Below are positions 1,144-36,422 of a DNA stretch of 37,031 nucleotides, in pieces. The stretch's first letter is position 1. Each line of letters begins with the position of its first letter. The stretch is from a virus. The translations under genes were made by a program, and so were the position numbers. The DNA lies in IMG/VR virus record IMGVR_UViG_3300017987_000195, positions 1-37,031 of that record. One strand, 5' to 3'. Below the pieces are notes generated by a model. That model ran no database searches. It saw only the letters and a list, made by a program, of their open reading frames with translations, and had not been told where the DNA came from.

Positions 1144-1908
1144 TTATAGTTTATTTTTGCCTTCTCTGGCGTTTATTATCTTTTGTGCCTGTTCGCGTAC
1201 TGCTTCGTATTTAGATCGTGGTATATCGGCTAGTGTTTGCACTTTAAGTGTTTCGAGTATTTGTTCTGCTATATCTGGGTAATTACTAAGCATGTATTGT
1301 AGTTCGTTAGCTTGGTGTTGTGTAACGGGCTCAAATGACTCCTCTTTTGCCTTGTATCGCGTGTTTATTCCTAGGCCGGCGTTGCGCTCCTTTCTAACTG
1401 TTTTCATGTCGTGTTCGCCATCGTCGTCGTCTAGGTCGTCTACTATGGTTACATTTAGAAGAGACATTATATCGTGTCGTTTCATTGCTTTTATGGCGGA
1501 GGCGTAAGATTGTATATCGTTCTTTGATGGGATTATTCTAGATCTTGTTTCTATGAACTGTGATGACTTGTGTCTTAATGTAGTGACAAGGATAGTCTTT
1601 TCGTTTTCTATTTTTGTTTGTTGGGTTACGGATAGGCCGTTGTCGGCTAGGGCCTTGCGTATGGTTCGCATGATTATATCTAGGTCTGAGTATTGGTTGA
1701 ATAGGAAGTTGTTGGCTCTGTTGGTCGTTATTGGTGGAAATTCGCCTTGAGCTTTGGCTAGGGCTGCGCATATTTGGTCTGTTTTTTCTGATTCGTATGG
1801 TTCGCTAGCTTTCTCTTTGATGTGCACGACTACTTTTTTGTTTATATGTTTTTCTAGCTCCTCAAAATGGGCTAGTTGATCTGAGAATGTTTCTTTATTT
1901 TCGTCCAC
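1144..1908 (-). CDS. ERF-superfamily single-strand annealing protein (copy 1)
   Basis: 254 residues from a GTG start at 1908, chosen because AAAGGAG lies a few bases upstream. ERF-type hallmarks are in order: the helix ALAKAQGEFPP (~48-58), the YSDLDIIMRTIRKALADNGL stretch (~73-92), strand ILVTTLRHKSSQFI (~105-118), then YASAIKAMKRHDIMSLLNV (~136-154) followed by the acidic DDLDDDDGE typical after the RYaL helix. ERF proteins anneal complementary single strands during phage recombination, replication and genome circularisation. The C-terminal ~90 residues are likely a helical adaptor region. It is the last gene of the leftward operon from 4004. A second, more compact ERF-type protein is encoded at 3274-3801; the two are strongly diverged, so this is not a recent duplication. 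Confidence 0.8.
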   Translation of the reverse strand: MDENKETFSDQLAHFEELEKHINKKVVVHIKEKASEPYESEKTDQICAALAKAQGEFPPITTNRANNFLFNQYSDLDIIMRTIRKALADNGLSVTQQTKIENEKTILVTTLRHKSSQFIETRSRIIPSKNDIQSYASAIKAMKRHDIMSLLNVTIVDDLDDDDGEHDMKTVRKERNAGLGINTRYKAKEESFEPVTQHQANELQYMLSNYPDIAEQILETLKVQTLADIPRSKYEAVREQAQKIINAREGKNKL

Positions 1909-2000: not shown

Positions 2001-2897
2001 TTATGCTGCTGGCATTGCGAATTCTACTGGCCCTATGTCGTAGGCTGGAAATTCGTAGTCGCCAATGTAAGCTCCATCGTCTTCTACTTCAGCAAATGTA
2101 ATAAGGTCATCATCGTCGTCTATGTCTAGTTCTAGAGATGGCATATCAAAAAACTCATCAGTTTCTATTGTTGATGAGGTACTATCGCTTGAATAGTCGC
2201 TAATTAAAAATTCGCCATCACTTGAAGAATCTGAAGAATCTGATGATACATATTGGTAATGTAGTCCGTATTCATAGTATGTATCGGCGTCAGGGTTTGG
2301 TATAAAAGTTTCTGGGATGTCTGTGTCTGGTGACATTTCATCTGTTCTGTCTTCTTCGGCTCTTCGCTCGGCTTCTTCTGCGCTAATTCGGCCAATTCTT
2401 GCCCATTGTATTCTGACGCTTGGTGTATCTGGAAGATCGCCTTCTCTGAGGCGATCTAGGTGCATAAATCTTGGTGGTATAGTGTCTCCTGCGTTTACGC
2501 GTATAATTCTAGTATCGATTTCGTCGCCTGATATCCTAAGGAATGCTAAGAATCGGCCGTACTCGCGTTCATCTTCAATTTGTTCGTCGGTAAAGCTGTG
2601 ATCTAGAAATTCTGTATAAGCGTGGTCTGTTGCAGCTTCTAGTCGATCAAATCTTTCCATTCCGACATCAAAAGGTTCTGCAGCTGAGGCTTCTGGGCTT
2701 TCGTCTGTCCGACGTCTTCTGAGGTGTTCGTCCAAGGAGGCGAGAAGAGCTCTTTGTTCTTCGTCCTCTCTTTGGCGTAGAACTCTTTCTTCTCGCAATC
2801 GTCTAAGTCTTTCTTCGTCTCTGCGCCTATCTTCGTCCATCCCATATCCTATTGCTGATATCATGCATAATGTTGTTAGTAATAGTATCTTCTTCAT
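2001..2897 (-). CDS. Exported acidic low-complexity protein
   Basis: 298 residues with a Sec signal peptide (MKK, hydrophobic LLLTTLCMISAI, cleavage near GYG-MDED, ~19). Next comes an Arg/Glu-rich charged helix (~20-60), a middle region with no recognised domain, an Asp/Ser-rich stretch (~215-245, with SSDSSDSSSD and DYSSDS), a DIDDDDD run and a C-terminus FAMPAA. The protein is very acidic and probably largely disordered. The start follows GGGAAGGGACAAAAC. The signal peptide predicts periplasmic, surface or secreted location. It sits with another exported gene between two ERF genes. Function is unknown; it does not resemble an endolysin. Host-surface or eukaryotic-effector roles are speculation. 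Confidence 0.75.
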   Translation of the reverse strand: MKKILLLTTLCMISAIGYGMDEDRRRDEERLRRLREERVLRQREDEEQRALLASLDEHLRRRRTDESPEASAAEPFDVGMERFDRLEAATDHAYTEFLDHSFTDEQIEDEREYGRFLAFLRISGDEIDTRIIRVNAGDTIPPRFMHLDRLREGDLPDTPSVRIQWARIGRISAEEAERRAEEDRTDEMSPDTDIPETFIPNPDADTYYEYGLHYQYVSSDSSDSSSDGEFLISDYSSDSTSSTIETDEFFDMPSLELDIDDDDDLITFAEVEDDGAYIGDYEFPAYDIGPVEFAMPAA

Positions 2898-2954: not shown

Positions 2955-2963
2955 TACATTTTT

Positions 2964-3272
2964 TTAAGCCGCTGGTCTAGCGTCTGCCTTTCGTATTAAT
3001 TCTTCTTCATCAGAAGAGTAGTCTTCTACGTCTAGTAGATCTAAATCTTCGTCGGTTGTAACAGGAGATGATGGTGGTACCGGAATAATTAAGTCTTCTA
3101 ATTCTGCGGGTACGTCTACGACAACGATGATTCCATCTTCTGTTCGCACAAAGCGACGTATTTCGACCCTTAGCACACGTCCTACTGGTGTAACGTGTGT
3201 TTCTTCATCTTCCATGCAGTATGCGTTACAGGCTAAAAACATAGCTGTGCATGCTATTAATATTTTCTTCAC
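2964..3272 (-). CDS. Exported small acidic protein
   Basis: 102 residues from a GTG at 3272. That start is preferred over the ATG at 3302 because AAGGA stands 6 bases before it, and because it lies one base past the TAG of the ERF gene (translational coupling) instead of overlapping it. The signal peptide is VKKILIACTAMFLACNAYC-MEDEE. The mature part is short and acidic, with a Val-rich beta-like centre (VLRVEIRRFV, GIIVVVDV), then DYSSDEEEL and a C-terminal RPAA. The SSDE-type acidic motif and the PAA end recur in the other exported proteins of this phage. No domain recognised. Confidence 0.7.
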   Translation of the reverse strand: MKKILIACTAMFLACNAYCMEDEETHVTPVGRVLRVEIRRFVRTEDGIIVVVDVPAELEDLIIPVPPSSPVTTDEDLDLLDVEDYSSDEEELIRKADARPAA

Positions 3273-3273
3273 T

Positions 3274-3801
3274 CTAGTTCCTTGTGTATTGGCTGTTGCC
3301 ATCGGTATCTTCGTCTGCGTCTATCCCTAGCATTGATTTAAGTGCGTGTCTTTTTGTGTAGGTGAGTGCTCCTCCCATCGCTTGTAGGTTTTCGTTGGTG
3401 TTAACTAGTTTGCCTATCATGGTGTATTTTTCAGGAACGGCAGTTACGGATCTAAGATATTGGCCGCTGGAGTGCAATATAAGAGTAATTACATATGTTT
3501 TGTCAGCTATCGTGTGAACAGGCTGCATACACGACAGACCTTGTTTAGCTAACACTGGTGATATTGCACTAAGGAGAGCCGGTAGAGACTGGTATTTGTA
3601 TCTACCGCCAGCGGCCTTATCTGTTTTCATTTCTGGCATTGATTTTTTGAATTCTGCCATGGCTTTTACTAGTTCATTGACTTGTGAGGACATAATGTTG
3701 TAGAAGAACTCCTTCTTGGCAACTTGCCTAGCGAATTTCTGAAGGAGCGTTATTTCATTTAAACGCTCTTCGGTGAAATTATGTGTATTTTCTTCCATCA
3801 T
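3274..3801 (-). CDS. ERF-superfamily single-strand annealing protein (copy 2)
   Basis: 175 residues, close to a minimal ERF core. Motifs in order: LVKAMAEFKKSMPEM (~45-59), YKYQSLPALLSAISPVLAKQGLS (~69-91, the usual Y-x-L-x2-ll...GL block), strand YVITLILHSSGQYL (~103-116), then LQAMGGALTYTKRHALKSMLGI (~138-159) and the acidic DADEDTDG. This is a better match to the classic ERF pattern than the 1144-1908 protein. It is expected to coat and anneal single-stranded DNA. It overlaps the RHH gene by 4 bases (ATGA) and abuts the exported gene at 3272, so the three are one transcription unit. Confidence 0.85.
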   Translation of the reverse strand: MMEENTHNFTEERLNEITLLQKFARQVAKKEFFYNIMSSQVNELVKAMAEFKKSMPEMKTDKAAGGRYKYQSLPALLSAISPVLAKQGLSCMQPVHTIADKTYVITLILHSSGQYLRSVTAVPEKYTMIGKLVNTNENLQAMGGALTYTKRHALKSMLGIDADEDTDGNSQYTRN

Positions 3802-4367: not shown

Positions 4368-4538
4368 ATGAAAAAGAACACTCTCTTAAGATATAAAAAA
4401 TCATACATAAGTCAAGCGGCAAACAGAAAAAACCTGTTGTATTCTGTTAATGTGAACGCTTGTAAAAGAAAAAACCCAAGGAACTTTCATTCTTTGGGTT
4501 TTTTTAGTACGTTAGTGTTATCATGCAAAACATACTAG
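4368..4538 (+). CDS. Possible short leader peptide or duplicated N-terminus
   Basis: 56 residues from ATG 4368, with no strong Shine-Dalgarno. Residues LRYKKSYISQA, then K-x-L-x-YS and C-x-RK, are repeated at the N-terminus of the 4523 gene. Beyond an identical 31-bp block, the conserved residues A, L, S, C and K use different synonymous codons in the two copies, which hints that the peptide is or was translated. Terminator 2 lies inside its 3' part. It may be a leader peptide, or a remnant of tandem duplication. Confidence 0.35.
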   Translation: MKKNTLLRYKKSYISQAANRKNLLYSVNVNACKRKNPRNFHSLGFFSTLVLSCKTY

Positions 4539-4572
4539 ATCTAAGATATAAAAAATCATACATAAGTCAAGC
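4387..4572 (+). repeat. 31-bp direct repeat pair (155-bp tandem duplication)
   Basis: Positions 4387-4417 and 4542-4572 are identical (they begin TAAGATATAAAAAATC and end CATAAGTCAAGC). The terminator stems ahead of them are spaced by the same 154-155 bp, so the unit is about 155 bp: roughly 4306-4460 and 4461-4615. Confidence 0.85.
4469..4505 (+). terminator. Intrinsic terminator / attenuator 2 ahead of wHTH gene
   Basis: AAAAAACCCAA (4469-4479) pairs with TTGGGTTTTTT (4494-4504), 14-base loop with CTTTCAT, T-run 4499-4505. This is a textbook intrinsic terminator 18 bases before the 4523 ATG. Its stem differs from terminator 1 by paired changes (CCCGG/CCGGG against CCCAA/TTGGG). Confidence 0.85.
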
Positions 4573-8281: not shown

Positions 8282-9640
8282 ATGGATCACCCCGTAGAAG
8301 TAAAAATTGCTCTTAATAAGTTTAGGCCTAGAGATTATCAGCGTCCTATTTTTAAGGCCTTTTTTGAAGATAAGTTTAGAAGGCTAGTAATTGTTATGTG
8401 TAGGCGTGCTGGAAAAGATCTGTGTACGTGGAACATAGTAATTAGGGAGGCTGCCACAAGGCCAGGAGTATATTACGTCGTATATCCCACATATGCTCAG
8501 GGCAAGAAAATACTGTGGTCGTCTGTAACTATATCAGGCATCCGTTTTTTGGATTATATACCCTACCAGCTTATTGATGGCTTAAACTCTCAGGAGATGA
8601 AAGTTACGCTTACTAATGGTTCAATTATTCAAATAATCGGTTCTGACAATCCTGATAGAATAGTAGGTACTAACCCCCAGGGCGTAGTATTCTCGGAATA
8701 TGCGCTACAAAATCCAAGGATTTACGCCCTGATGTCTCCAATTCTTGCAGCTAATAAGGGATGGGCAATATTTCAATCTACACCCAGAGGACGCAATCAT
8801 TTCTGGGATTTATACCAGCTTGCATTGAATTCGCCTGACTGGTGGACATGCAAGCTGGGTCTAAACGAAACACGGCACATAGATCCAGCTGAGATAGACA
8901 GAGAAATATCTGAAGGGCTAATGTCCCCTGATCTTGTTCAGCAAGAATATTACGTTAGTTTTGATGCTGGTGTCGAAGGCTCGTATTACTGTAAGTACAT
9001 AGATAGAATGCGTTTGAACAACCAGCTAAGCATTGTGCCTTGGGAAGCTGGATTTAAGGTGCATACTGCGTGGGATATAGGGGTAAGGGACTCAACCTCA
9101 ATAATCTTTTTTCAGACTATAGGTCAAACTGTTCGCATAATTGATTATTACGAGAAGAATAAAGAGGGTCTTGAGCATTATGTTGGCTATGTATTATCAA
9201 AGCCTTATACGTATGGTACCCACATAGCTCCACATGATATTAAGGTAAAAGAATTTGGCTCTGGGATGACTAGAATAGAAAAGGCAAAACAGCTTGGTAT
9301 TAAATTCACTGTAGCGCCCAATATTTCTATCATGGATGGTATAGAATCTGTGCGTTCTGCTTTTAGTAAAATATGGATTGATGAGGAACGGTGTGCCACA
9401 CTTATTAGATCATTGGAGAATTACAGGCAAGAATATGACTCAAAAAGGCAGGTTTACAAAGATGTTCCGCTTCATGATAAACATAGTCATGCTGCGGACT
9501 GCATGAGATACATGTGTATATCGCTTCCAAAGACGCGTGATGGCCTGTCGTCAGAAGAACTTGAGAAGATGCGAAATGAGGCTGTGTATGGGGTTGATTC
9601 GTCAATCCCGGCGTTTTTTAGGTCTAATAAAAGGTTCTAG
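8282..9640 (+). CDS. terL: Terminase large subunit
   Basis: 452 residues, normal for a compact TerL. The N-terminal ATPase has Walker A RRAGKD (41-46), Walker B GVVFSEY (134-140, catalytic Glu139) and coupling motif QSTPRGRNHFWDLY (~165-178). The C-terminal RNase H-like nuclease has AWDIG (Asp265), PHDI (Asp319) and HDKHSHAADCMRY (Asp399/Asp406). The motor cuts concatemers and pumps DNA through the portal encoded at 10273. Walker A is unusual in ending with K-D instead of K-S/T. The ATG follows the previous stop by one base with little Shine-Dalgarno, suggesting coupling. Confidence 0.95.
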   Translation: MDHPVEVKIALNKFRPRDYQRPIFKAFFEDKFRRLVIVMCRRAGKDLCTWNIVIREAATRPGVYYVVYPTYAQGKKILWSSVTISGIRFLDYIPYQLIDGLNSQEMKVTLTNGSIIQIIGSDNPDRIVGTNPQGVVFSEYALQNPRIYALMSPILAANKGWAIFQSTPRGRNHFWDLYQLALNSPDWWTCKLGLNETRHIDPAEIDREISEGLMSPDLVQQEYYVSFDAGVEGSYYCKYIDRMRLNNQLSIVPWEAGFKVHTAWDIGVRDSTSIIFFQTIGQTVRIIDYYEKNKEGLEHYVGYVLSKPYTYGTHIAPHDIKVKEFGSGMTRIEKAKQLGIKFTVAPNISIMDGIESVRSAFSKIWIDEERCATLIRSLENYRQEYDSKRQVYKDVPLHDKHSHAADCMRYMCISLPKTRDGLSSEELEKMRNEAVYGVDSSIPAFFRSNKRF

Positions 9641-9649
9641 GAGTGTATT

Positions 9650-9937
9650 ATGCAAAGAAAGAAATTTGCTGCCGTTTTGTTCTGTATAGTAAGTACAGCT
9701 TTTATGGTTTCTTGTTTAAAAAAAACTGCGTCAGGGGCCGCGACGGGTGTAATGAGCGGCCTAAAAACTGTTGCCCTTTGTGTGGGTGCAATATTCAAAA
9801 GTTTTAACCCAAGGCGTCACCGTCGACATATTCACGTTGAAAATACTTCAGAAGAAATGTCTCTTCCCCAGGTTCCTACAACAGATGAACCTGTAGCTCA
9901 AGATAAAACCATTGTTAAACGCGCAGAAAGTAAATAA
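9650..9937 (+). CDS. Small lipoprotein
   Basis: 95 residues with MQRKKFAAVLFCIVSTAF and lipobox MVSC (Cys~22), so a signal-peptidase II substrate anchored in a membrane. The mature part has a second hydrophobic stretch (VALCVGAIF), a basic RRHRRH patch and a Pro/Thr-rich end. The next gene encodes an N-anchored protein; the pair could be spanin-like, but lengths and motifs are not decisive. Confidence 0.6.
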   Translation: MQRKKFAAVLFCIVSTAFMVSCLKKTASGAATGVMSGLKTVALCVGAIFKSFNPRRHRRHIHVENTSEEMSLPQVPTTDEPVAQDKTIVKRAESK

Positions 9938-10186
9938 GTGAAATTGGGCTCGCTTCTTGGATTCTTGTGTGCGATAGCTTTTGTTGCAACATTGATAATT
10001 AGTACTCCTAGAGAAAAAGAAGTATTGATTAGCGCAACTAAAAAGATCATAAATGTTGTGGAATCAAATTTGGTTGTTTTATGGTACAAATTTCGAGGAA
10101 TTGAGCCCTTTTATATTGAGGAAGGAGAAGACCCCTTTAAGGGCTCCCGGGAGATTGAGCCTTCTGAGGGAAATGAATTTATCTAA
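9938..10186 (+). CDS. N-anchored small membrane protein (GTG start)
   Basis: 82 residues from GTG directly after the TAA of the lipoprotein gene. One N-terminal hydrophobic helix (LLGFLCAIAFVATLII), then a helical and acidic tail (EPFYIEEGEDPF). Probably an inner-membrane anchored partner of the lipoprotein. No clear Shine-Dalgarno, so coupling is likely. Confidence 0.5.
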   Translation: MKLGSLLGFLCAIAFVATLIISTPREKEVLISATKKIINVVESNLVVLWYKFRGIEPFYIEEGEDPFKGSREIEPSEGNEFI

Positions 10187-10272: not shown

Positions 10273-12336
10273 ATGCTCTTTCCCGAATTAGGCCCTCAGT
10301 TCTATGAGGAAAACGATAATTCTCTTCTCGCTAGAATGTCTACCTTCTACAAAGACAGCATCACGATTAACCAGTCCTTTTGGGAAGAAGCAGATATTGA
10401 TACAAGATTTGAGGCAGGCGACCAATCGCTGTGGACGGACATGTATGGACTTATTCCACATAATCGTCGCAAGCAATTTAATTTCAACAGGATACGTCGC
10501 GTTGTTAATATGATTTCAGGCTGGCAACGACAGAATAGAAAGTCGACAATTGTTACGCCAGTTGAGAACGGCGATTCAGAAACGTCAGATCAATTTTCTA
10601 AAATACTTATGTGGATCAATCAACGTGAGGGTGTTTTGGAAACTATTTCCGAAGCGTTTCATGGTTCTTTGGTTACGGGGATGAATCTATTACAGCTTTG
10701 GGTTGATTACAGAGCGGACCCTGTTTCTGGTTCTATAAAAGTAGACAATTGTGCTCACAATGCGTTCTTGATTGATCCCTTTTTTAGGAAGAAAGATCTT
10801 TCTGATTGCAACGCCATCTGGAAGCGTTCATATTTAACGCGTAGGGACGTTATGTCTCTTCTTCCAGATCATAAAGATTTAATTATGTCTCTTCCCGCTA
10901 AGGACGATCGTGATGGCAAATTCAACTATATGCCAGAAAGCTTTAATGTTGGTACAAAGAATTTGCTTATGTATGACGAGTTCTATTACAGAGATTATAG
11001 AAAACAGAAGATGCTGATAGATACCGTTACTGGTGAGACAATGGAATGGACGAGTCCTGATAAAGAAAAGTTAAAAGAATATTTAAGATTTTATCCGCAA
11101 GTCACGGTTACTGAGTGTGAGATACCAACCGTTAAGATGGCTGTAGTGGTTCAGGGTAAAGTTATGTATGACGGCCCTAATCCGATTGGGACTGATAGAT
11201 ATCCATTTGTTCCTGTTTTTGGGTATTATAATCCTCAAATGTCAGATTACCCATGGAGGATACAGGGAGTCGTCCGGGGCCTCCGCGATTCCCAGTATCT
11301 ATATAATCGAAGAAAAGTTATTGAGTTAGACATCCTTGAAAGTCAAATCAACTCCGGATTTAAATATAAGATCGATTCTCTAGTCAACCCTAAGGATGTC
11401 TTTCTCTCTGGTCAGGGAAGAGGTCTTGCTTTAAAGCAAGATGCTCAGATGACAGATGTTGAGCAAATTCTACCTCCTCAGATTCCTCCTTCAATGATTC
11501 AGTTATCAGAGATTCTTGGTCGAGAGATTCAGGAAATATCTGGTGTTAATGAAGAGCTGTTGGGATCAGCTACGGATGATAAGGCGGGAATCCTTTCGAT
11601 GTTGCGTCAGGGGGCTGGCCTAACCACCTTGCAGATACTGTTTGATCAGTTAGACAGATCGCAGAAGTTACTTGGAAGTCTGATGCTTGATGTAGTTCAA
11701 TCTAATTTTACCCCTGGCAAGGTTGCAAAGATAATAGAAGATGAGCCTACGGCACAGTTCTATAACAAAGCGTTTGGCAAATATGACGCAGCCGTCGAGG
11801 AGGGTATAAATACTACAACGCAAAGACAGATGCAGTTTGCCCAGCTTTTACATTTAAGAGAAGCTGGAATAGAGATACCAGATAGTGCTTTACTTGAAGC
11901 GTCTACTATTCAAAACAAAAAAGATCTTATAGATACAATTGAGTATCAAACTCAGCAAACGCAGAAGCTTCAGCAGTCACAGATGGAAATGGAGATGGAG
12001 CAAACGAAGGCTAATATTGAGCTTGCAAGGGCTAGAACTGTAGCTGACCAGGGTCTTGGTGTTGAAAGATTTAGTCGAGTACGTGAAAACGAAGCACTTG
12101 CTGTTGAGAGAAGGGCTGAAGCTGAAAAAGACCAGGCTACGGGCATTCTCAATATCGTAAAGGCGTTAAAAGAAATAGAATCAATTGACATTGCCCAGTT
12201 AGAAAAATTAGTCTCCTTGTCTAGGATTCTTTCTGCAAAAGAAAAGGTTTCAGAAGGAGAAGAAGCATTGGGACCTGTTGCTAATGCGATGCAACGAGCC
12301 CAAGAATCAACAAGGCAAACAGCTGAGTTAGGTTAG
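10273..12336 (+). CDS. Portal protein (P22 type)
   Basis: 687 residues, the size of P22-like portals. The N-terminal region has FNRIRRVVNMISGWQRQNR (~73-91), the family's conserved block, and a middle segment PFVPVFGYYN...WRIQGVVRGLRDSQ typical of the stem and wing. From ~560 a long Gln/Glu/Ala-rich helix (QTQKLQQSQMEMEMEQ, VERFSRVRENEALAVERRAEAEK) resembles the P22 C-terminal barrel. It forms the dodecameric DNA channel. AAGGAAG precedes the ATG. The 86-base gap upstream shows no convincing promoter or terminator. Confidence 0.92.
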   Translation: MLFPELGPQFYEENDNSLLARMSTFYKDSITINQSFWEEADIDTRFEAGDQSLWTDMYGLIPHNRRKQFNFNRIRRVVNMISGWQRQNRKSTIVTPVENGDSETSDQFSKILMWINQREGVLETISEAFHGSLVTGMNLLQLWVDYRADPVSGSIKVDNCAHNAFLIDPFFRKKDLSDCNAIWKRSYLTRRDVMSLLPDHKDLIMSLPAKDDRDGKFNYMPESFNVGTKNLLMYDEFYYRDYRKQKMLIDTVTGETMEWTSPDKEKLKEYLRFYPQVTVTECEIPTVKMAVVVQGKVMYDGPNPIGTDRYPFVPVFGYYNPQMSDYPWRIQGVVRGLRDSQYLYNRRKVIELDILESQINSGFKYKIDSLVNPKDVFLSGQGRGLALKQDAQMTDVEQILPPQIPPSMIQLSEILGREIQEISGVNEELLGSATDDKAGILSMLRQGAGLTTLQILFDQLDRSQKLLGSLMLDVVQSNFTPGKVAKIIEDEPTAQFYNKAFGKYDAAVEEGINTTTQRQMQFAQLLHLREAGIEIPDSALLEASTIQNKKDLIDTIEYQTQQTQKLQQSQMEMEMEQTKANIELARARTVADQGLGVERFSRVRENEALAVERRAEAEKDQATGILNIVKALKEIESIDIAQLEKLVSLSRILSAKEKVSEGEEALGPVANAMQRAQESTRQTAELG

Positions 12337-12349
12337 AGGTATTTTACCT

Positions 12350-12433
12350 TGACGCTTAGCTGCCCAAGAGGAAGTTATATGTATAAAATATATACTTTTT
12401 CACCATTATACGTTTTGGGCGGCGAAAGCGTCA
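12350..12433 (+). repeat. Long-range two-part hairpin after portal gene
   Basis: TGACGCTT (12350-12357) pairs with AAGCGTCA (12426-12433), and GCCCAA (12362-12367) with TTGGGC (12415-12420), separated by a small internal loop. The apical part is AT-rich. There is no T-run. It ends shortly before the ribosome-binding region of the next gene, so it could protect the mRNA or control translation. Confidence 0.6.
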
Positions 12434-12453
12434 GTTACCGGAAAGGGCTTGAA

Positions 12454-12681
12454 ATGGCCAAAAAGCGTTACTACGACAAAATGAGAGAGGCAACAGAAGG
12501 AGGAATGATTGCCGGTCCTGTAGGACAAGCAATGATGCCTCAGAATGTGATCATGAAGAATTATCCTAAAGATGGCTCTTATCTTCCCGAAGATATCAAT
12601 GATGGTTTAACAGGGATTGATAAGCAGATATCTGCAGCTAAATCAGACATAAAAAAACAGTTGTCTCCAACAAAGTATTGA
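12454..12681 (+). CDS. Small hypothetical virion-region protein
   Basis: 75 residues beginning MAKKRYYDKMREA. The start at 12454 follows GGAAAGGGC; an in-frame ATG at 12379 with AGAGGAAG upstream is an equal alternative, giving 100 residues. A conserved-looking middle (MMPQNVIMKNYPK, DINDGLTGIDKQI) suggests a real family, but I cannot name it. It lies between portal and scaffold, so a virion or assembly role is likely. Confidence 0.55.
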   Translation: MAKKRYYDKMREATEGGMIAGPVGQAMMPQNVIMKNYPKDGSYLPEDINDGLTGIDKQISAAKSDIKKQLSPTKY

Positions 12682-12709
12682 TAGTCTTTATTGCTACTAT
12701 TACTACTCT

Positions 12710-12748
12710 GGTATTGGGAATGCCATAACGGTACTCCCAATACCGTTA
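12710..12748 (+). promoter_or_regulatory. Two mutually exclusive hairpins before a start site
   Basis: Hairpin A is GGTATTGGGA (12710-12719) with TCCCAATACC (12735-12744). Hairpin B is TAACGGTA (12726-12733) with TACCGTTA (12741-12748). They share 12741-12744 and B sits in A's loop, so only one can form. B touches the Shine-Dalgarno (AAAGGA, 12748-12753) of the 12760 gene. No T-run. Confidence 0.6.
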
Positions 12749-12759
12749 AAGGAAATAAG

Positions 12760-12966
12760 ATGCCAGTTAATATAAGAAAAGATGGGCTTGGTAAAAAGAT
12801 TGCAGCAAATATTTTAGGCCCTCCAAGGGGTGGTTTAACCGATTCATTTGGAAACAGTAAACGTTTTGTTCCTAGAAGGGAGAGAAAAGATGCAGAAGCG
12901 CTCTATCAAGAAAGGCTCGAAGGCGAAAAAATCAACGGTCTCCAAAAAGCGGGCTATCGCTGGTAA
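12760..12966 (+). CDS. Small basic hypothetical protein
   Basis: 68 residues from ATG 12760, supported by AAAGGA 6 bases upstream. Gly/Arg/Lys-rich N-terminus (GLGKKIAANILGPPRGG) and a charged helical C-terminus. Its last 77 bases overlap the start of the next gene in another frame. No family recognised. Confidence 0.5.
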   Translation: MPVNIRKDGLGKKIAANILGPPRGGLTDSFGNSKRFVPRRERKDAEALYQERLEGEKINGLQKAGYRW

Positions 12967-22755: not shown

Positions 22756-24126
22756 ATGGCAGTTTATTTTGCACCTCCTCCTGCTGGCGGCTCTGCGGGT
22801 ATAGGCGCGTCAATTGGTGAAAGCCTCTCGAAGACATTACAAATGTTGGCTCAGAGCAAGATGCTTCAGCAGCAACAGCAACAAATGATGAGAATGCAAG
22901 AGCAAGCTCAGCAAAGAAAAGCCTTTGATGTTTCTCGGGGTTTAGCGGCGATGGGGGTCCCTGATGAAATTTCGCAGCAAATATCTTTCATGCCAGAAAG
23001 CCAGCAAAATTTGTTTTTAAAGCAGTTTTTCGGATCCGAGGCCTTTGGAGCAGGCGAAAGTGGAATGACAGGAGAATTAGAGGAGGGACTTCAAACGATT
23101 GATGCAGCAAAGGGACTAGAGGACTTGCTTGGGCCACGAAGGCCGGTTGTAGCAGAAGAAGTTGAAGCCGAAGGTATTGTAGAACCAACCGCGGTTGGGG
23201 AAGCTCCAGAGCCAGATTATGGTGCGCTTACAAAACAGATACAGGCCAAGGTAGATACATTGTCTCCGGAAGACAGAAAAGCTCTTAAGAGTGAAATTGA
23301 GCGTATTAAGACTGAAGTTGCTCCTAAGGCAGAAGAGGCTATTCCTGCAGAGGCTAGTAGAGAAGCAAAGCCTGGTTATAGGTTGCAAGCTAAGCCAGCC
23401 GCGAAAAAATCTTTTAAGGAACTGTTAGCAACTCCTAGGCCCACGGCTGCAGATCGTAAAAGAGCTGAAGATTTGGCTATGAAAAAGGAGACGATGTCGC
23501 TTGCACGCCAGAAAGAAATAAATAAAGATACAAAGTCATACTTTGATGAAACAATGAAGTCTGGAAAAGCTGCACGAGAAAATGACATGCGGCTTAAGAG
23601 AATGTCTGCTTTGCTTAAAAAGGGAAAGCTAACAAGTCCTGCATTCTATAATATATTAAATACAATAGATAAAGGTCTTTTTGGGTTTGGTGTTAACTTG
23701 AAGTTCTTAATGAACCCTGATTCTCAAGAATTTGAAAAGCTGTCTACAGATTTTACAAAGAATGCAAAAGATATATTTGGATCTCGTGTTACGCAGAGTG
23801 AAATACAATTATTTTTAAAAACTATTCCTACTTTGTCTCAAACAGATGCTGGAAAAAGGCGAGTAATAAGAAACTGGAAGATGCTTAATGAGGCCGGAAA
23901 GCTTAAAAAGAAAGCAATGTTAGAAATAATTGAAATGAATGGAGGCCAACGACCAGCAGGGCTACAGGTTCTTGTTGAAAAGAAGGTTGGACCAAAATTA
24001 GATCAACTCGCACGTCAATTTGCTGGAAAAAAGAAGGAAAAGAAGGCTAAGGATGAAGGAGTTCTCGGGACAATACTTGGTGGCATAGAAAGTGCTAGAA
24101 GATATTTGAGTCCAAGTAAGCGATAA
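22756..24126 (+). CDS. Probable internal virion protein, large
   Basis: 456 residues. Gly/Pro N-terminus, a poly-Gln-rich helix (~35-57, MLQQQQQQMMRMQEQAQQRK), an acidic Pro/Ala/Glu linker (~105-205), then a Lys-rich helical C-terminal half. Composition and last place in the structural operon fit an ejectosome component. The gene meets the leftward exported cluster tail to tail, 7 bases apart, with no clear terminator between. Confidence 0.5.
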   Translation: MAVYFAPPPAGGSAGIGASIGESLSKTLQMLAQSKMLQQQQQQMMRMQEQAQQRKAFDVSRGLAAMGVPDEISQQISFMPESQQNLFLKQFFGSEAFGAGESGMTGELEEGLQTIDAAKGLEDLLGPRRPVVAEEVEAEGIVEPTAVGEAPEPDYGALTKQIQAKVDTLSPEDRKALKSEIERIKTEVAPKAEEAIPAEASREAKPGYRLQAKPAAKKSFKELLATPRPTAADRKRAEDLAMKKETMSLARQKEINKDTKSYFDETMKSGKAARENDMRLKRMSALLKKGKLTSPAFYNILNTIDKGLFGFGVNLKFLMNPDSQEFEKLSTDFTKNAKDIFGSRVTQSEIQLFLKTIPTLSQTDAGKRRVIRNWKMLNEAGKLKKKAMLEIIEMNGGQRPAGLQVLVEKKVGPKLDQLARQFAGKKKEKKAKDEGVLGTILGGIESARRYLSPSKR

Positions 24127-24133: not shown

Positions 24134-24379
24134 TTATTTAAAGCACAACTTTTTAAATATTCTTTTTAGTAGAGATTTTTTACGGCTTCCTTTTGCGAAT
24201 TCGCATTCGATAACCTTTTCAAGCATGTCTCCAAAAGGCCGCTCTGATTCTTCGCCAATTTCTATATTTGATTTAATTCTTTTTTGGATATTACGATCTC
24301 TGTGTCGGTGTTTATTTGATGAATAACAACCAGTTCCAATAAAAATTAGAGCTATAAAAGCGAGTAAAGATTTATTCAT
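24134..24379 (-). CDS. Small lipoprotein in the leftward exported cluster
   Basis: 81 residues. Signal peptide MNKSLLAFIALIFIGTG with Cys18 as lipobox (IGTGC), then a basic His/Arg/Lys stretch (KHRHRDRNIQKR) and a basic C-terminus (KKSLLKRIFKKLCFK). Membrane-anchored and positively charged. It overlaps the gene at 24372 by 8 bases. Unknown function; the basic amphipathic end could contact envelope. Confidence 0.6.
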   Translation of the reverse strand: MNKSLLAFIALIFIGTGCYSSNKHRHRDRNIQKRIKSNIEIGEESERPFGDMLEKVIECEFAKGSRKKSLLKRIFKKLCFK

Positions 24380-24629
24380 TTTCGTCGTCCTCTTTTAGTT
24401 CGTTTAATAGAAATTGCATTTTCTCTTTTAGATCACGCATGCATTTTAGCGCATGATTACTTAGAATTTGCACGTATATTTGTATTGTGCTCATATTTGG
24501 ATTTTTTTGGGCTATTTTGGATATCTCGTCTTGTAAAAGTTCTATGGTTACGTTGTTTCTTGGGCGTTCAATTGGAAAAGAACTTAGACTTGTAAGTAGA
24601 AGAAGGGTGGCTATAAGAACTGTTCTCAC
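24372..24629 (-). CDS. Small exported helical protein (GTG start)
   Basis: 85 residues from GTG 24629 with AGGA 6 bases upstream. Signal peptide MRTVLIATLLLLTSLSS, then a helical mature part (ITIELLQDE-like, ILSNHALKCMRDLKEKMQFLL) with an acidic end. Forms a pair with the lipoprotein gene. No domain known to me. Confidence 0.55.
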   Translation of the reverse strand: MRTVLIATLLLLTSLSSFPIERPRNNVTIELLQDEISKIAQKNPNMSTIQIYVQILSNHALKCMRDLKEKMQFLLNELKEDDENE

Positions 24630-24685
24630 TGTAAATCCTATCTTTTTAGATTAATACATGGAACGACACTCCATATAATTATACA

Positions 24686-24741
24686 CAAATGTCCTACTCC
24701 AATTTACCCAGGAGGAGGTTTTATTTGGAATAGGACATTTG
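24686..24741 (-). repeat. 17-bp hairpin after exported operon
   Basis: CAAATGTCCTACTCCAA (24686-24702) pairs with TTGGAATAGGACATTTG (24725-24741). The single mismatch is C-A in rightward RNA but G-U in leftward RNA, so the structure serves the leftward transcript. It lies just after the 24756 gene, but no T-run follows. It may end or process the exported operon mRNA. Confidence 0.7.
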
Positions 24742-24755
24742 CATTTGGGTGAGTG

Positions 24756-25187
24756 TTAGGCCGGAGGAGCGGCTCTAAGCCTTTCCATTTCCATTCTGGC
24801 TATTATTGCACGCGCTTTATCGTTGTAGGTATGAATAAATCTAAATCTTTCTTCAAAAGTAAATCTGTGAAATAGTGTTCTAGCCTCAGGAACTCCAATA
24901 CGGATAAGCCGTACTATTTCAGCAGGATCTTCTTGGAGCAATTCGCGTACTCTGTCTCGAGGCCTTCTCATGGCAACCGAGAGAATTTTTATTGCTAAAG
25001 CTGCCAGTGTTTCATCAAGTGGCCTTGTAATAGCCATAACTCCTCGATGTACCATTCGCACTGGAGCGTTAGCTGCAGAAATAATTCTTGATATAAGGCC
25101 TCTTTCTGCGGGCGCCTCTTCAATTCCATAAGCGTTTATACTTACCGATAACATGATCGCTATAAATAATGTTTTAATCGTTTTCAT
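24756..25187 (-). CDS. Exported Arg-rich helical protein
   Basis: 143 residues. Signal peptide ending near NAYG-IEEAP (~22), then mostly amphipathic helices rich in Arg, Ala, Ile (IISAANAPVRMV, IRIGVPEARTLFHRF, KARAIIARMEMERLR), ending RAAPPA. AAAGGACACT before the ATG resembles the signals of sibling genes. Such helices could disturb membranes or bind partners. No family recognised. Confidence 0.65.
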   Translation of the reverse strand: MKTIKTLFIAIMLSVSINAYGIEEAPAERGLISRIISAANAPVRMVHRGVMAITRPLDETLAALAIKILSVAMRRPRDRVRELLQEDPAEIVRLIRIGVPEARTLFHRFTFEERFRFIHTYNDKARAIIARMEMERLRAAPPA

Positions 25188-25199
25188 AGTGTCCTTTCT

Positions 25200-25775
25200 T
25201 TATTCATCAGAAGAAGAATCGTCTACTGAAATTCGTCTTTTGCGACGTCTTTTTTTGCGCTTTCTTCTTTCTCGGCCCTCGTCTGAGCTATAATAACGGC
25301 TTTCCTTAAGTCTTCCTTTAAGCAATAACTTTTCCCGTATCATTTCACGCCTAGCTGCGATAATGTCTTGCTCAGCTCTTTTAATAATGGCTTCTTTTCT
25401 TTTAAGTTCCTCATGAAGTTGTTTTACGGATGCTGCAGTTTTTTTAGCATTTTCAGCAGCCGCTTCTCTTTCTTGAATTCGTTCTTTTTCTGTGGCCATC
25501 TTATCTCTGTTTTGAAGCCAATTCCTTAGCTTTAAAAATCCGTATGTTCCGCCCGCAAGCAACAATGTTGCCATAGGGTGATTTACGCACAAGGATGCAA
25601 GTCTGGCGCTTAAAGTTACTGCTGTGCTAGCCAACCAGCTTCCAGATCTAACCATCACGTCAGAGACGTATTCTCCCCCCTCTGACGTGGATGTAACTGA
25701 AGTTGTAACAGCGTTTACTGAGTTAGCTATGAATACGGACATAACCAGTGCAAATATTATTGTTTTCTTTTCCAT
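25200..25775 (-). CDS. Exported membrane protein with coiled coil and RK/SSDE tail
   Basis: 191 residues. Signal peptide ~1-22 (ending SVNA), Thr/Ser-rich part, a transmembrane helix (~70-86, MATLLLAGGTYGFLKL), a long coiled coil (~90-150), then YYSSDEG, a run of Arg/Lys (~168-182) and DDSSSDE at the end. Its Shine-Dalgarno GGGGGA sits in the loop of an AU hairpin (25777-25793, ATATTT/AAATAT). The acidic Ser motifs recur in the 2001 and 2964 proteins. Function unknown. Confidence 0.65.
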   Translation of the reverse strand: MEKKTIIFALVMSVFIANSVNAVTTSVTSTSEGGEYVSDVMVRSGSWLASTAVTLSARLASLCVNHPMATLLLAGGTYGFLKLRNWLQNRDKMATEKERIQEREAAAENAKKTAASVKQLHEELKRKEAIIKRAEQDIIAARREMIREKLLLKGRLKESRYYSSDEGRERRKRKKRRRKRRISVDDSSSDE

Positions 25776-25816
25776 GATATTTCCCCCAAATATTATTTAT
25801 AACCTAACCAATTGTT

Positions 25817-26350
25817 TTATAGATATTCGTCGCGCTCATCTTCATCAAAGTAGTAATCATAATCATCGTCATCATCAAGGTCGTCCAAACCAAGACCGTC
25901 TAATTCAAAGTCAAAATACCTACTTCTTCTTCTTTGATGTCTGATCTTTGCAAGCCTTTTATTTGCTCGCTTTAGCGCTCTCATCAATAAAAGCTGTTTC
26001 TCTTCTTGCGAATGTCCCGAAAATTTGTCTTTTATGATGTCTGCGCCAGCAGCAATTAGATATGGAATAGCTACCTGTGCAACAGTTCCAAGCCCAAAAG
26101 GCAAGATTGTTGAAGCTAAAGCCGTACCAGCAATAGGTAGCGCGCCTTTGCTTAGAGCGCGTTTTCCGAGGCTATAAGCGCCTTTAAGTGCCGAGCTTCC
26201 AACTGAAGCTAGTCCCGATGTAATTGCAGATGTAATTCCTGACATTATAGATGGCGTCTCTATGACACCAGCAGCTGCTCCGGCCGATACATTATTAGTA
26301 ATTACCGCAAACAACGCTATCGCTAAAATCGTTTTCTTGAAATTCTTCAT
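25817..26350 (-). CDS. Exported Gly/Ala-rich protein with acidic tail
   Basis: 177 residues. Signal peptide MKNFKKTILAIALFAVITNNVSA, then a long Gly/Ala/Ser-rich hydrophobic segment (~24-110, SGITSAITSGLASVGSSALKG, ILPFGLGTVAQVAIPYLIAAG) that looks able to enter membranes, a basic patch (RHQRRRSR) and an Asp/Tyr/Glu-rich C-terminus. First gene of the exported operon. Ribosome-binding context AAAGGGACATC matches the 2897 gene. A pore or holin-like action is conceivable; there is no direct sign. Confidence 0.65.
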   Translation of the reverse strand: MKNFKKTILAIALFAVITNNVSAGAAAGVIETPSIMSGITSAITSGLASVGSSALKGAYSLGKRALSKGALPIAGTALASTILPFGLGTVAQVAIPYLIAAGADIIKDKFSGHSQEEKQLLLMRALKRANKRLAKIRHQRRRSRYFDFELDGLGLDDLDDDDDYDYYFDEDERDEYL

Positions 26351-26382
26351 GATGTCCCTTTCCTTTGCACCCCCCCAAGGGC

Positions 26383-26400
26383 GCGGTTAATATATACCGC
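26383..26400. repeat. Inverted repeat in leader of exported operon
   Basis: GCGGT (26383-26387) and ACCGC (26396-26400) flank TAATATAT. It lies between the promoter region and the 26350 start, next to the G-run element at 26370-26382. Confidence 0.45.
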
Positions 26401-26410
26401 AACTATAAAC

Positions 26411-26439
26411 AGCTTAACATTGTCCATTGTCTTTGTCAA
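26411..26439 (-). promoter_or_regulatory. Possible leftward promoter of exported operon
   Basis: A perfect -35 TTGACA (26439-26434, leftward) stands inside the palindrome TTTGTCAACAAA (26432-26443). The -10 at 17 bases (TAAGCT) is poor; a good TATAGT is too far (26 bases). An activator may be needed. Confidence 0.35.
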
Positions 26440-26467
26440 CAAAAATATTAAAAGCTGCAAAAGTGCC

Positions 26468-26495
26468 AAAAATAACCACTTTTGAGGTTATTTTT
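26468..26495 (-). terminator. Terminator at the end of the HNH gene
   Basis: AAAAATAACC (26468-26477) and GGTTATTTTT (26486-26495) form a perfect 10-bp stem with T-run on either strand. It overlaps the stop codon of the HNH gene and separates it from the exported operon promoter. Confidence 0.7.
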
Positions 26496-26970
26496 CGAGT
26501 TTTTTGTCTATTTTCTTCTCATATTCTACGACCTCAGAAAGCCTTTTAAATATATATTTTGTTATGGTTACATTGTATTTTTTTGCTGTTTTTCGGATGT
26601 ATTCCACGAGTGTTCTTGGAAGATCTACGCTTAGGCGTTCTCTTCCCAGTCTTTTTGACTTTCTCTCTTCTGGCTTCTTTCTGGTACCGCGTTCTTCAGA
26701 CAAGTACAGATGAGCTGGATTTGTGCACGCAACATTTTTGCATTTGTGACGAACATATTGATTTTTTGGTATTTTGCCATGTGAAACCATCCAGGCAGCC
26801 CTATGGGCCCAAATTGTTTCGCCATAAACGAATATTCGTGGAGGGCGCTTCTTGTTCTTTATTCTTCCACTCCACGCATAGCACTCATTCTCATTCGTTA
26901 TAATGCGATATTTATCAAGAGTTTCCAGGAATCTTGCTCTCCTGTATTTGTTCATATTTTTAATTTTCAT
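26488..26970 (-). CDS. HNH endonuclease fused to ribbon-helix-helix domain
   Basis: 160 residues. The N-terminal HNH_3-type nuclease (~28-95) has AHRAAWMVSHGKIP, VRHKCKN, the paired CTNPAHLYL and the catalytic His run (HrAa / HkC / NPaHL). The C-terminal ~45 residues (RLSVDLPRTLVEYIRKTAKKYNVTITKYIFKRLSEVV) have a strand-helix-helix RHH pattern. Homing-type HNH enzymes often carry a small DNA-binding domain at the C-terminus; RHH there is less common. It overlaps the 26960 gene by 11 bases. Could be a homing nuclease or a regulated packaging/defence nuclease. Confidence 0.75.
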   Translation of the reverse strand: MKIKNMNKYRRARFLETLDKYRIITNENECYAWSGRIKNKKRPPRIFVYGETIWAHRAAWMVSHGKIPKNQYVRHKCKNVACTNPAHLYLSEERGTRKKPEERKSKRLGRERLSVDLPRTLVEYIRKTAKKYNVTITKYIFKRLSEVVEYEKKIDKKLEK

Positions 26971-27205
26971 GATTTCTACCTCTCTCCCTTGATTTGCTCT
27001 GAAGCCTTCGTCTTTTAAGAACCGAAAGCCCTATGGCATATTCTCTAAATTGCCGAGCCAATTCTAGTGTTTGTATGAATTTTTCACGTTTTATATCGCT
27101 AAAGCAGTCAATGCCGAGCTCTTCTATAAACAAATCCCCTATGTATGGAATAGATAAAAACTCGGCATTAATCTTCAAAAGCTGTTTTTTTGTTATTTTT
27201 CCCAT
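26960..27205 (-). CDS. Small helix-hairpin-helix-like protein
   Basis: 81 residues. FLSIPYIGDLFIEELGIDCFSDIK (~16-39) fits the pattern L-x2-IP-x-IG-x3-A/I-x2-L-x-LGI-x-DL of HhH proteins (Cdd1-like), which bind DNA backbone without sequence preference. Arg/Lys-rich end (KRRRLQSKSRERGR). First gene behind a good leftward promoter and just before the HNH gene. Probable DNA-binding partner. Confidence 0.5.
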   Translation of the reverse strand: MGKITKKQLLKINAEFLSIPYIGDLFIEELGIDCFSDIKREKFIQTLELARQFREYAIGLSVLKRRRLQSKSRERGRNHEN

Positions 27206-27238: not shown

Positions 27239-27267
27239 ATAGTACTATTGTCTCTGATGTTTGTCAA
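27239..27267 (-). promoter_or_regulatory. Leftward promoter of HhH-HNH operon
   Basis: TTGACA (27267-27262), 17-base spacer, TACTAT (27244-27239), ~34 bases before the 27205 start. Strong sigma70 match. Confidence 0.75.
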
Positions 27268-34219: not shown

Positions 34220-34599
34220 CAGTAGCTTCTGCAGACAATTCAATAGAAGTTACTGGTGGGGCTGGAACAATAGATCTTTCGGCTACTGGAACAGTTGCTA
34301 TAAACGCTCAAACTGGAACTACTTATACGTTGGTTATTGGTGATGCTGGAAAACTTGTAACTCTTGATAATGCCGCAGCGATCGCAATGACAGTGCCACC
34401 TAATTCTTCAGTGGCATTTGATACAGGTACTACAATTATTTTTGCTCAAAAGGGCGCTGGTACCGTTACATTTACCGAAGGAAGTGGCGTTACTATTGAA
34501 TCTAGAGACGCTGCCTTTGATACTGTTGGGCAATTTTCTATGGCTTCCTTAGTAAAAATAGGCACTGATACTTGGTATTTATCTGGAGATGTTGAATGA
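33400..34599 (+). CDS. Fibre protein with repeated modules
   Basis: 399 residues. Contains GGTGAATLTDHGVLIGSG, the phage-fibre pattern GSVELATDAEAIDGTDSVRAIVPTSLKAKLG (~90-120) and one full copy of the module found twice in the 30826 gene. C-terminal ~90 residues (TYTLVIGDAGKLVTLDNAAA...FSMASLVKIGTDTWYLSGD) are a small beta domain often ending phage fibres. Overlaps the propeller gene by ATGA, so the two are made together. Confidence 0.7.
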   Translation: MATQNAIGSNIPIEITLGGTGAATLTDHGVLIGSGTGAITPLAVGTNGQVLVGSTGADPVFATIASSDGSITFATGAGTLGITGTAAGEAQVGSVELATDAEAIDGTDSVRAIVPTSLKAKLGTQTDHGLLVGSGTTAAITALAVGATGEALIGNTGADPSWSSTLTVTTVNATTFDTNVAAAAVTLSGTTLSADGTDGDIDINITAKGTGQVIIDDLQLTTDLAVTEGGTGASTLTDHGVLVGSGTAAVTALAVGTNGQVLVGSTGADPVFATVASADNSIEVTGGAGTIDLSATGTVAINAQTGTTYTLVIGDAGKLVTLDNAAAIAMTVPPNSSVAFDTGTTIIFAQKGAGTVTFTEGSGVTIESRDAAFDTVGQFSMASLVKIGTDTWYLSGDVE

Positions 34600-36422
34600 T
34601 AAACATTCTTGGTTCTATATGGTCGTCTAGAAGAGATCCATCTCTAGAATGGACTATAAATTCATCAGCTGCGACCTTATTTGGCGCTAATGAAATAAGC
34701 AATGTTCATTATGATGGATCATACTACTGGGTTGCTGTGGGCGCAAATGGGATCATAGGATACGCTATAAATCCAACTGGTACATGGACAGCAGCATCAA
34801 CACCATCATTTGGAACATCGTTAATACTTGATGTTTGGTATGACGGTACTACATGGGTTGCTTGTAGCATTGACTCAAAGATAGCAACTGCAACAGATCC
34901 TACTGGAACGTGGACTCAAAGATCTAATCCGTTTACTGGTTTTATATCATCTCTTTATTATGGTTCAGATGGTTATTGGGTAGGTGTTGGAGAGGGAGGC
35001 GAATTGGCTACCGCTACAGATCCTACAAGTACGTGGACGTCAAGAACATCAAGCTTTGGTGCAGATAATGTGTATGGCATTGCGTATGATGGCTCAACTA
35101 ATTGGGTGGCTACTGGAAACGCTGGAAAGATAGCTACAGCATCAGATCCAACAGGTACTTGGACACAGAGAACCAGCCCATTTTCTAGTATTAATGTTAG
35201 GGATGCGTTTTATGATTCAAATAATGGAATATGGTGCATTGTTGCTTATGATGGTGAGATAGCAACGGCAACTGATCCTACTGGTACTTGGACTTTAACA
35301 ACTGGGACAGGTTATGGCTCAAGTGATGACTTCAGAAGATTGTATTACGGAGATAAAAAGTTTTGTGCAGTAGGATTAGCAGACATAATAACGACATCTT
35401 TTAAACCTCAATTTAGGTGGAAAACAAATACTTCGCCATTTAGTGGAAGCAATATCCTTGGAGTAGCTTATGGAGAAGATGGATATTGGGTTAGTACGGG
35501 GGCCTCTGGAAATCTTGCCACGGCTCCAGGTTCTTTTCTGTTTCATTACGATTGGACATCAAGAAGTGCTGGAGCGATAGGGAGTTCTATGCGTGGCATT
35601 GCATATGATGGGAGCACGTATTGGACTGCGGTAAATGCGGACGGTTCAGGCTCTTCTGATCTTGTTACGTCTACTGACGCGATAACCTGGACAATCCAAG
35701 AAACAACTTTGAATGATATGAGAGATATAGACAATGACGGAACTTATTGGTGTGCTGTTGGTGATGCTGGTTATATGATAACAGCTACAGACCCGACATC
35801 TACCTGGACATCTAGAACGTCTGGATTTGGATCAACAAACATACAAGGTGTTTACTATGATGGCTCAACGTACTGGTTAGCGATGGGTAGTTCTGGAACT
35901 CTTACTACTGCAACCGATCCAACGTCTACATGGACATCTAGGACGTCTTCTTTTGGGACGACAGGCATAAGGTCAGCTGTTTATGATGGATCAACTTATT
36001 ATGTGATGGTTGGAGAAAGTGGAAAATTGGCCACTGCAACAGATCCAACGAGCACATGGACTCAAAGGACATCGTCTTTTGGAACTACTCGTATTAGGTA
36101 CGTAACATATTCTTCAGTTTTATCGTTGTTTTGTGCTGTTGGAAATGATGGGAAGATAGCTACGGCAAGTGATCCAACTGGTACATGGACGCAGAGGACA
36201 AATGTATTTGGTGCTTCAGAGATTATTTCAACAGTTAGATGGGATCCAGTTAAAAAATTATTTGTTGCGATAGGAACTAGCGGCACTATAGGCTTGTCTG
36301 CGGATGGAATAAATTGGATTGCTGACTCTGGAGGTTTTTCAAATGATTGGGATTTATACGAAGGCGATGGATTTTTAGTTGCAGTTGGAGACGGTCCAAC
36401 AATTAAGACTAGTTTTAGTTAA
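34596..36422 (+). CDS. Double beta-propeller-like receptor-binding protein
   Basis: 608 residues made almost wholly of ~14 repeats of 40-48 residues with the consensus T/SDPTGTWTQRTSxF...YDGSTYWVAVGxxGKIATA. Fourteen would give two seven-bladed propellers; near-identical ends ADIITTSF (after repeat 6) and PTIKTSFS (end) could instead mark 6+8. No signal peptide or shaft, so it probably binds the preceding fibre (ATGA overlap). Repeats 10-12 are closest to each other, suggesting recent duplication. Receptor or glycan binding inferred. Confidence 0.7.
   Translation: MINILGSIWSSRRDPSLEWTINSSAATLFGANEISNVHYDGSYYWVAVGANGIIGYAINPTGTWTAASTPSFGTSLILDVWYDGTTWVACSIDSKIATATDPTGTWTQRSNPFTGFISSLYYGSDGYWVGVGEGGELATATDPTSTWTSRTSSFGADNVYGIAYDGSTNWVATGNAGKIATASDPTGTWTQRTSPFSSINVRDAFYDSNNGIWCIVAYDGEIATATDPTGTWTLTTGTGYGSSDDFRRLYYGDKKFCAVGLADIITTSFKPQFRWKTNTSPFSGSNILGVAYGEDGYWVSTGASGNLATAPGSFLFHYDWTSRSAGAIGSSMRGIAYDGSTYWTAVNADGSGSSDLVTSTDAITWTIQETTLNDMRDIDNDGTYWCAVGDAGYMITATDPTSTWTSRTSGFGSTNIQGVYYDGSTYWLAMGSSGTLTTATDPTSTWTSRTSSFGTTGIRSAVYDGSTYYVMVGESGKLATATDPTSTWTQRTSSFGTTRIRYVTYSSVLSLFCAVGNDGKIATASDPTGTWTQRTNVFGASEIISTVRWDPVKKLFVAIGTSGTIGLSADGINWIADSGGFSNDWDLYEGDGFLVAVGDGPTIKTSFS

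What the first reader, a model, noticed from the sequence alone, without database searches (positions are those of the whole stretch)
24134..26350. Phage-encoded battery of exported low-complexity proteins
Five leftward genes here, plus two at 2001-3272, encode Sec-exported or lipid-anchored proteins without known domains. They share features across two distant cassettes: acidic serine motifs (DYSSDEEE, YYSSDEG, DDSSSDE, SSDSSDSSSD), signal peptides ending in YG/YC before an acidic start, basic or acidic tails, and in two cases the same leader signals. Clustering leftward against the structural genes suggests a separate programme. The SxxE/D motifs look like casein kinase 2 sites; if the host lives inside a eukaryote, they might be effectors. 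Envelope remodelling or lysis without a classic endolysin is an equal alternative.
Basis: partly seen in the sequence, partly recalled or inferred. Interest (0 to 1): 0.75.

Follow-up and report, generated by a model that had tools for sequence, protein, structure and literature searches.

The report
Phage cassette of exported fast-evolving proteins
A virus of bacteria that probably live inside protists carries a separate, quickly changing set of genes for proteins sent out through the bacterial membrane; they are real genes, they do not look like its normal lysis or particle genes, and they most likely act on the host's envelope or surroundings, although nothing yet shows which.

Summary
All seven ORFs exist, with ribosome sites and Sec-type leaders; 9 of 52 window genes pass my leader rule, against 0 of 91 non-gene ORFs. 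The five at 24134-26350 sit in a leftward run behind an HNH-Arc-like gene. Nearly every close relative has a similar leftward run of exported genes (1-7) at this spot, but sequences turn over fast: major capsid protein is 88-93% identical while cassette proteins are 42% at best or undetectable. dN/dS is 0.21-0.35 against 0.03-0.07 for virion genes, so they are coding.

The 'CK2' motif is not enriched. No endolysin was found in this clade, although distant relatives have an M15 endolysin; two relatives lack exported genes at this spot, so a lysis module is possible but less likely.

Host evidence points to Chlamydiota, not Dependentiae (which could not be tested): the nearest genome-derived terminases, one remnant inside a chlamydial contig, and secreted proteins of related phages (Peptidase_A4, 'GGGP' family) with chlamydial chromosomal homologues.

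Best reading: exported host-interaction cargo of a Chlamydiota-associated tailed phage. Eukaryote-directed effectors are not excluded and not shown.

The parts
26960..27205 (-). 81-aa first gene of the leftward run, not exported; homologue in L086 (60% identity)
27239..27267 (-). Promoter-like site TTGACA-17-TACTAT just upstream of the leftward run (10/12 match; the number of such sites in the region is no more than in shuffles)
26488..26970 (-). HNH endonuclease with C-terminal Arc-like ribbon-helix-helix; most constant gene of the cassette (42-53% identity); candidate regulator or mobility gene
25817..26350 (-). Exported protein, 'T family': signal peptide, Gly/Ala-rich hydrophobic segment (about residues 69-102), basic coil, acidic tail; found in 8 phages, 31-42% identity to the window copy
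25200..25775 (-). Exported protein: signal peptide, hydrophobic segment, coiled-coil-like and basic region, DDSSSDE end; positional counterpart of SP-hydrophobic-segment proteins in relatives (homology weak, hhalign E=7e-4 over the N-terminal 49 residues only)
24756..25187 (-). Exported helical protein, 143 aa; no homologue found; unreliable model (pLDDT 51), no PDB fold match
24372..24629 (-). Exported small protein, 85 aa; positional orthologue in L075 and L076 (hhalign E=2e-4)
24134..24379 (-). Exported small protein, 81 aa, lipobox-like (GTGC) in the window only; overlaps the preceding gene, as do the counterparts in L075 and L076; aligned Cys shared with relatives but homology not significant
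2001..2897 (-). Exported acidic protein, 298 aa (mature net charge about -45), SSDSSDSSSD; no homologue found
2964..3272 (-). Exported acidic protein, 102 aa, DYSSDEEE; no homologue found
1144..1908 (-). Erf-like ssDNA annealing protein flanking the second exported pair
3274..3801 (-). Second Erf-like annealing protein on the other flank
9650..9937 (+). Conserved exported lipoprotein between terminase and portal (third exported-cargo spot)
9938..10186 (+). Short exported or membrane protein following the lipoprotein
8282..9640 (+). Terminase large subunit, anchor for relatives and tree

Best explanation
24134-27205 is a leftward accessory (cargo) cassette of a short-tailed-type phage whose host is most likely a Chlamydiota bacterium. 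An HNH-ribbon-helix-helix gene heads it, followed by a fast-changing set of Sec-exported, non-virion proteins. Shown by sequence: the genes, leaders, strand, conserved location, coding constraint and rapid turnover; similar exported cargo at two further spots (Erf-Erf, terminase-portal) in relatives. Inferred: the proteins leave the cytoplasm during infection and act at the host envelope or beyond it (blocking or remodelling the surface, or acting in the vacuole of the protist), and their turnover reflects changing hosts or rival phages. Inferred: the HNH gene or nearby recombination (two Erf proteins) helps exchange the cargo.
For: Leader rule: 9/52 genes against 0/91 non-gene ORFs. Among genes opposite to TerL, 44/109 have leaders in the close clade against 14/107 in outgroups, Fisher p=6e-6. 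The same interval carries leftward exported genes in L075, L076, L077, L083, L086, L089/L091, L098, L100, G017 and G018. MCP 88-93% identity against at best 42% for cassette proteins; dN/dS 0.21-0.35 against 0.03-0.07. Tandem paralogues in L076. Host: in a scan of 84,980 species genomes the best TerL relatives include three Chlamydiota contigs among the first four (L126, L127, and L128 = G160, which lies in the Chlamydiota set) plus L130; a portal-TerL remnant lies inside a 125-kb chlamydial contig; the 52-row TerL clade has five Chlamydiota rows of six genome-derived rows. Phage G028 in the sister clade carries an exported Peptidase_A4 (E=1.4e-27) with 38-50% identical homologues in 16/234 Chlamydiota, on chromosomal contigs where inspected, and 0/90 Pseudomonadota. 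The exported GGGP family of G016/G028/G031 occurs in 4/234 Chlamydiota and 0/398 Pseudomonadota.
Against: No function, structure or expression evidence; both models are poor. Leader prediction is a home-made rule. The T family has no match in 234 Chlamydiota genomes, and the window's own 16-row subclade has no genome-derived member, so the host is inferred from neighbours in the tree; the nearest genome-derived TerL by score is in a Methylococcaceae bin (L125). Specificity was tested only against Pseudomonadota. G011 and G004 have only 1-2 exported genes here and L095/L096 none.
Confidence: 0.55

Rival explanations
1. The cassette is a non-canonical lysis module: the SP-hydrophobic-segment proteins make membrane lesions and the coil or lipoprotein members act like spanins, enough for a host with little peptidoglycan.
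For: No peptidoglycan hydrolase found by Pfam or PHROG in the window or in the novel proteins of six relatives, although an M15 endolysin is found in relatives of lower TerL identity. Hydrophobic segments in 25200 and 25817; weak Rz-like match E=0.021; overlapping small pair at the end of the run.
Against: L095/L096 have no exported gene in this interval, and G004 has one. Several relatives outside the clade have neither the run nor a detected endolysin, so the two do not go together. The lipobox is not conserved. Leftward against the structural genes.
Confidence: 0.22
2. The proteins are effectors that leave the bacterium and act in the eukaryotic cell housing it, comparable in role to the eukaryotic association module of phage WO.
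For: Chlamydiota-type host inferred; related phages export a Peptidase_A4, a clostripain (C11, E=8.6e-41) and a HIT-like protein (E=1.3e-3, HxHxH); RS-rich and acidic-serine stretches in some members.
Against: CK2-type sites are not enriched; no eukaryotic-type domain in the window's seven; Sec export alone reaches only the periplasm and no onward route is shown; chlamydial effectors mostly use type III secretion without a Sec leader (background knowledge).
Confidence: 0.18
3. The genes are neutral or decaying ORFs kept by chance in a variable spot.
For: Very fast turnover; several members have no detectable homologue.
Against: dN/dS 0.21-0.35, SD sites, leaders and gene order maintained in many phages.
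Confidence: 0.05

Closest known systems
Pelagibacter phage HTVC010P and related short-tailed phages
   Same: TerL relative (about 37% identity) in a 34-37 kb genome
   Different: Exported cassette was not looked for in HTVC010P; virion gene order not compared here; host differs
Eukaryotic association module of phage WO (PMC5062602)
   Same: Accessory genes in a phage of an intracellular bacterium, outside the structural operon (functional analogy only)
   Different: The WO module carries genes with eukaryotic-like domains; here small exported proteins without known domains
Chlamydial inclusion membrane (Inc) proteins (background knowledge)
   Same: Closely spaced hydrophobic segment followed by coil or charged region, as in 25817
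   Different: Inc proteins are type III secreted without a Sec signal peptide; these have one; no sequence match
Canonical holin-endolysin-spanin cassette
   Same: Several small membrane or exported proteins in one run, one with a weak Rz-like match
   Different: No endolysin detected; dispensable in two relatives; fast-changing membership

Membership tests
Canonical dsDNA-phage lysis cassette | Peptidoglycan hydrolase (endolysin) | tested here: not met
   None in Pfam/PHROG scans of window and relatives; M15 endolysin detected in distant relatives as positive control
Canonical dsDNA-phage lysis cassette | Inner- and outer-membrane spanin pair | tested here: inconclusive
   Rz-like E=0.021 for 25200; lipobox in 24134 not conserved; lipoprotein at 9650 conserved
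Canonical dsDNA-phage lysis cassette | Holin with membrane-lesion activity | not testable with these tools
   Hydrophobic segments only
Casein kinase 2 substrate-like effectors | Excess of [ST]xx[DE] sites | tested here: not met
   104 observed, 100.1+-8.8 in shuffles; acidic-serine windows 10 against 4.9+-1.8
Eukaryotic association module (phage WO) | Eukaryotic-like protein domains | tested here: not met
   No significant Pfam match for the seven proteins
Eukaryotic association module (phage WO) | Host is an obligate intracellular bacterium | tested here: inconclusive
   Chlamydiota link from relatives, none from the window's own subclade
Chlamydial Inc proteins | Type III secretion without Sec leader | tested here: not met
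   Signal peptide predicted
Short-tailed-type phage with HTVC010P-like terminase | TerL, portal and major head protein families | tested here: met
   phrog_2/2472, phrog_156, phrog_1357; TerL 37% to HTVC010P

The most novel reading that the evidence does not exclude
Tailed phages of protist-dwelling Chlamydiota carry, at several genomic spots, exchangeable sets of secreted proteins, including proteases shared with chlamydial chromosomes, that act outside the bacterium on the vacuole or the eukaryotic cell, so the phage influences a host two levels up.
Probability: 0.2. Interest if true: 0.9.

Novelty: new variant of a known kind. Interest (0 to 1): 0.58.

Why it matters
My literature searches found no description of tailed phages of Chlamydiota with exported cargo (limited library). 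If the host link holds, this phage family opens the question of how a virus reaches and leaves a bacterium inside a eukaryotic cell, and whether phage-borne secreted proteins (for example the Peptidase_A4 shared with chlamydial chromosomes) move host-interaction genes among intracellular bacteria. It also gives a set of small, fast-evolving exported families to test as superinfection-exclusion or lysis factors.

Tried and rejected
Structure prediction of the 25817 family (pLDDT 49) and of 24756 (pLDDT 51; no PDB match): uninformative. TerL query alone in genome contigs: no relatives; the profile did find some. Search of the T family in Chlamydiota genomes and of the C11 protease: no match. Homology of 24134, 24756 and 25200 to positional counterparts beyond the N-terminus: not supported. 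I suspected ankyrin repeats in L227:2734-3258: no Pfam match. CK2 motif idea: rejected. Dependentiae as host could not be tested: no genome handle was available. Promoter and terminator scans gave no more sites than shuffles.

Full report
What is there. The window is a 37,031-base phage record from IMG/VR whose two ends both lie in tail-fibre-like repeats and share no terminal repeat, so it is probably a cut or permuted genome. Terminase, portal and major head protein match phage families. The five leftward ORFs at 24134-26350 and two at 2001-3272 exist as described. With one rule (hydrophobic core, positive start, small-residue cleavage site, SD site) 9 of 52 genes pass and 0 of 91 non-gene ORFs do. 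The rule is mine; no dedicated signal-peptide predictor was available.

Conservation of the spot. Terminase and tail queries brought in over a hundred related loci. In close relatives the interval between the last virion gene (22756-24126) and the first fibre gene (27356) carries a leftward run of exported genes next to an HNH-Arc-like gene: L075, L076, L077, L083, L086, L089/L091, L098, L100, G017, G018. The number varies from one (L083/G004) to seven; L095 and L096 keep the HNH gene without exported genes, as do the more distant L299/L300. Among genes opposite to TerL, leaders occur in 44/109 in the close clade and 14/107 in outgroups, p=6e-6. Genes and genomes are related, so this p-value is only indicative.

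Turnover and constraint. Major capsid protein is 88-93% identical to relatives, while of the seven only 25817-26350 has blast-level homologues (34-42% identity). That family (8 phages) has a leader, a Gly/Ala-rich hydrophobic segment, a basic coil and an acidic tail. 24372-24629 has a positional orthologue by profile (E=2e-4); 24134, 24756 and 25200 do not beyond the N-terminus. For pairs that can be aligned, dN/dS is 0.21-0.35 for five exported families against 0.03-0.07 for TerL and MCP (synonymous sites partly saturated). The genes are thus coding and evolve several-fold faster. Coding constraint was not tested for 2001, 2964, 24134 and 24756, which lack alignable relatives.

Motifs. The acidic-serine strings are real but occur in three of seven proteins. 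Across exported proteins of the clade, [ST]xx[DE] is at shuffle level (104 against 100.1+-8.8); windows rich in both Ser/Thr and Asp/Glu are mildly over-represented (10 against 4.9+-1.8). The casein-kinase argument is therefore not supported.

Lysis. Scans of the window and of the novel proteins of six relatives found no peptidoglycan hydrolase. The method does find endolysins in this family: an M15 protein (PHROG E=1.2e-10) in G033, with homologues in L037, L122, L106, L060/L061, L028/L105, L045 and L048/L049. Absence of a detected endolysin also holds for several relatives without the exported run, so it does not point to the run as its replacement. A holin- or spanin-like role for some members stays possible.

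Host. A profile of TerL searched in 84,980 species genomes gave, in order of E-value, a contig in a Methylococcaceae bin, two in Chlamydiia MAGs, and one titled Acidobacteria that is found in the Chlamydiota set of the genome search (L128 = G160), with a Simkaniaceae contig two rows below. Chlamydiota are 234 of about 98,000 species in the collection of the genome search. One chlamydial 125-kb contig holds a portal fragment and TerL, with insertion-sequence genes, between chromosomal genes. In the TerL tree the 52-row clade with the window has six genome-derived rows, five of them Chlamydiota; branch support there is moderate and the window's 16-row subclade has none. Related phages share exported genes with Chlamydiota: Peptidase_A4 of G028 (sister clade) has 38-50% identical homologues in 16/234 Chlamydiota and 0/90 Pseudomonadota; in the contigs I read, these have leaders and sit beside what look like housekeeping genes such as clpX, ileS and aro genes. 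In one (G115) a terminase relative of another group lies a few kilobases away. The GGGP family of G016, G028 and G031 is in 4/234 Chlamydiota and 0/398 Pseudomonadota; the chlamydial copies I read have no evident leader. Dependentiae could not be tested.

Mechanism. Sec leaders place the products at least in the periplasm. Fast change with kept architecture, and exported cargo at three spots (virion-fibre, Erf-Erf, terminase-portal), fit host-interaction genes better than virion parts. I put host-interaction cargo (envelope or beyond) at 0.55, a lysis module at 0.22 and eukaryote-directed effectors specifically at 0.18. No step past export is shown.

Noticed in passing
L236 / G016 (IMGVR_UViG_3300017991_000034), oriented 10981-12888: TerL open frame appears interrupted by an intein-like segment (Hint-like start; a LAGLIDADG_1 match occurs among the scanned proteins of relatives, not assigned to this one).
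   Followed up: partly
L253:4900-5724 (-), phage G028: Exported Peptidase_A4 (acid glutamic-peptidase type) in a phage, with chlamydial chromosomal homologues.
   Followed up: yes
L236:3482-4810 (-), phage G016: Exported clostripain-family (C11) protease between terminase and portal; no match in 234 Chlamydiota genomes.
   Followed up: partly
L224:11403-12314 (+), phage G001: Exported HIT-like protein (HAHLHF motif; Pfam HIT E=1.3e-3, just under its cut-off) next to Erf1.
   Followed up: partly
G195:C1 about 18.5-25.5 kb (L215, L216): Degraded prophage (portal fragment, TerL) with insertion-sequence copies inside a chlamydial chromosomal contig.
   Followed up: partly
window 1144-1908 and 3274-3801: Two diverged Erf-like annealing proteins in one phage, both conserved in close relatives.
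   Followed up: no
window 34596-36422 and 197-1066: Fibre-like gene with repeats of about 42 residues, matching repeats at the other end of the record.
   Followed up: no
window 4387-4626: Two 85-base direct repeats (74% alike) at the start of the rightward early region.
   Followed up: no
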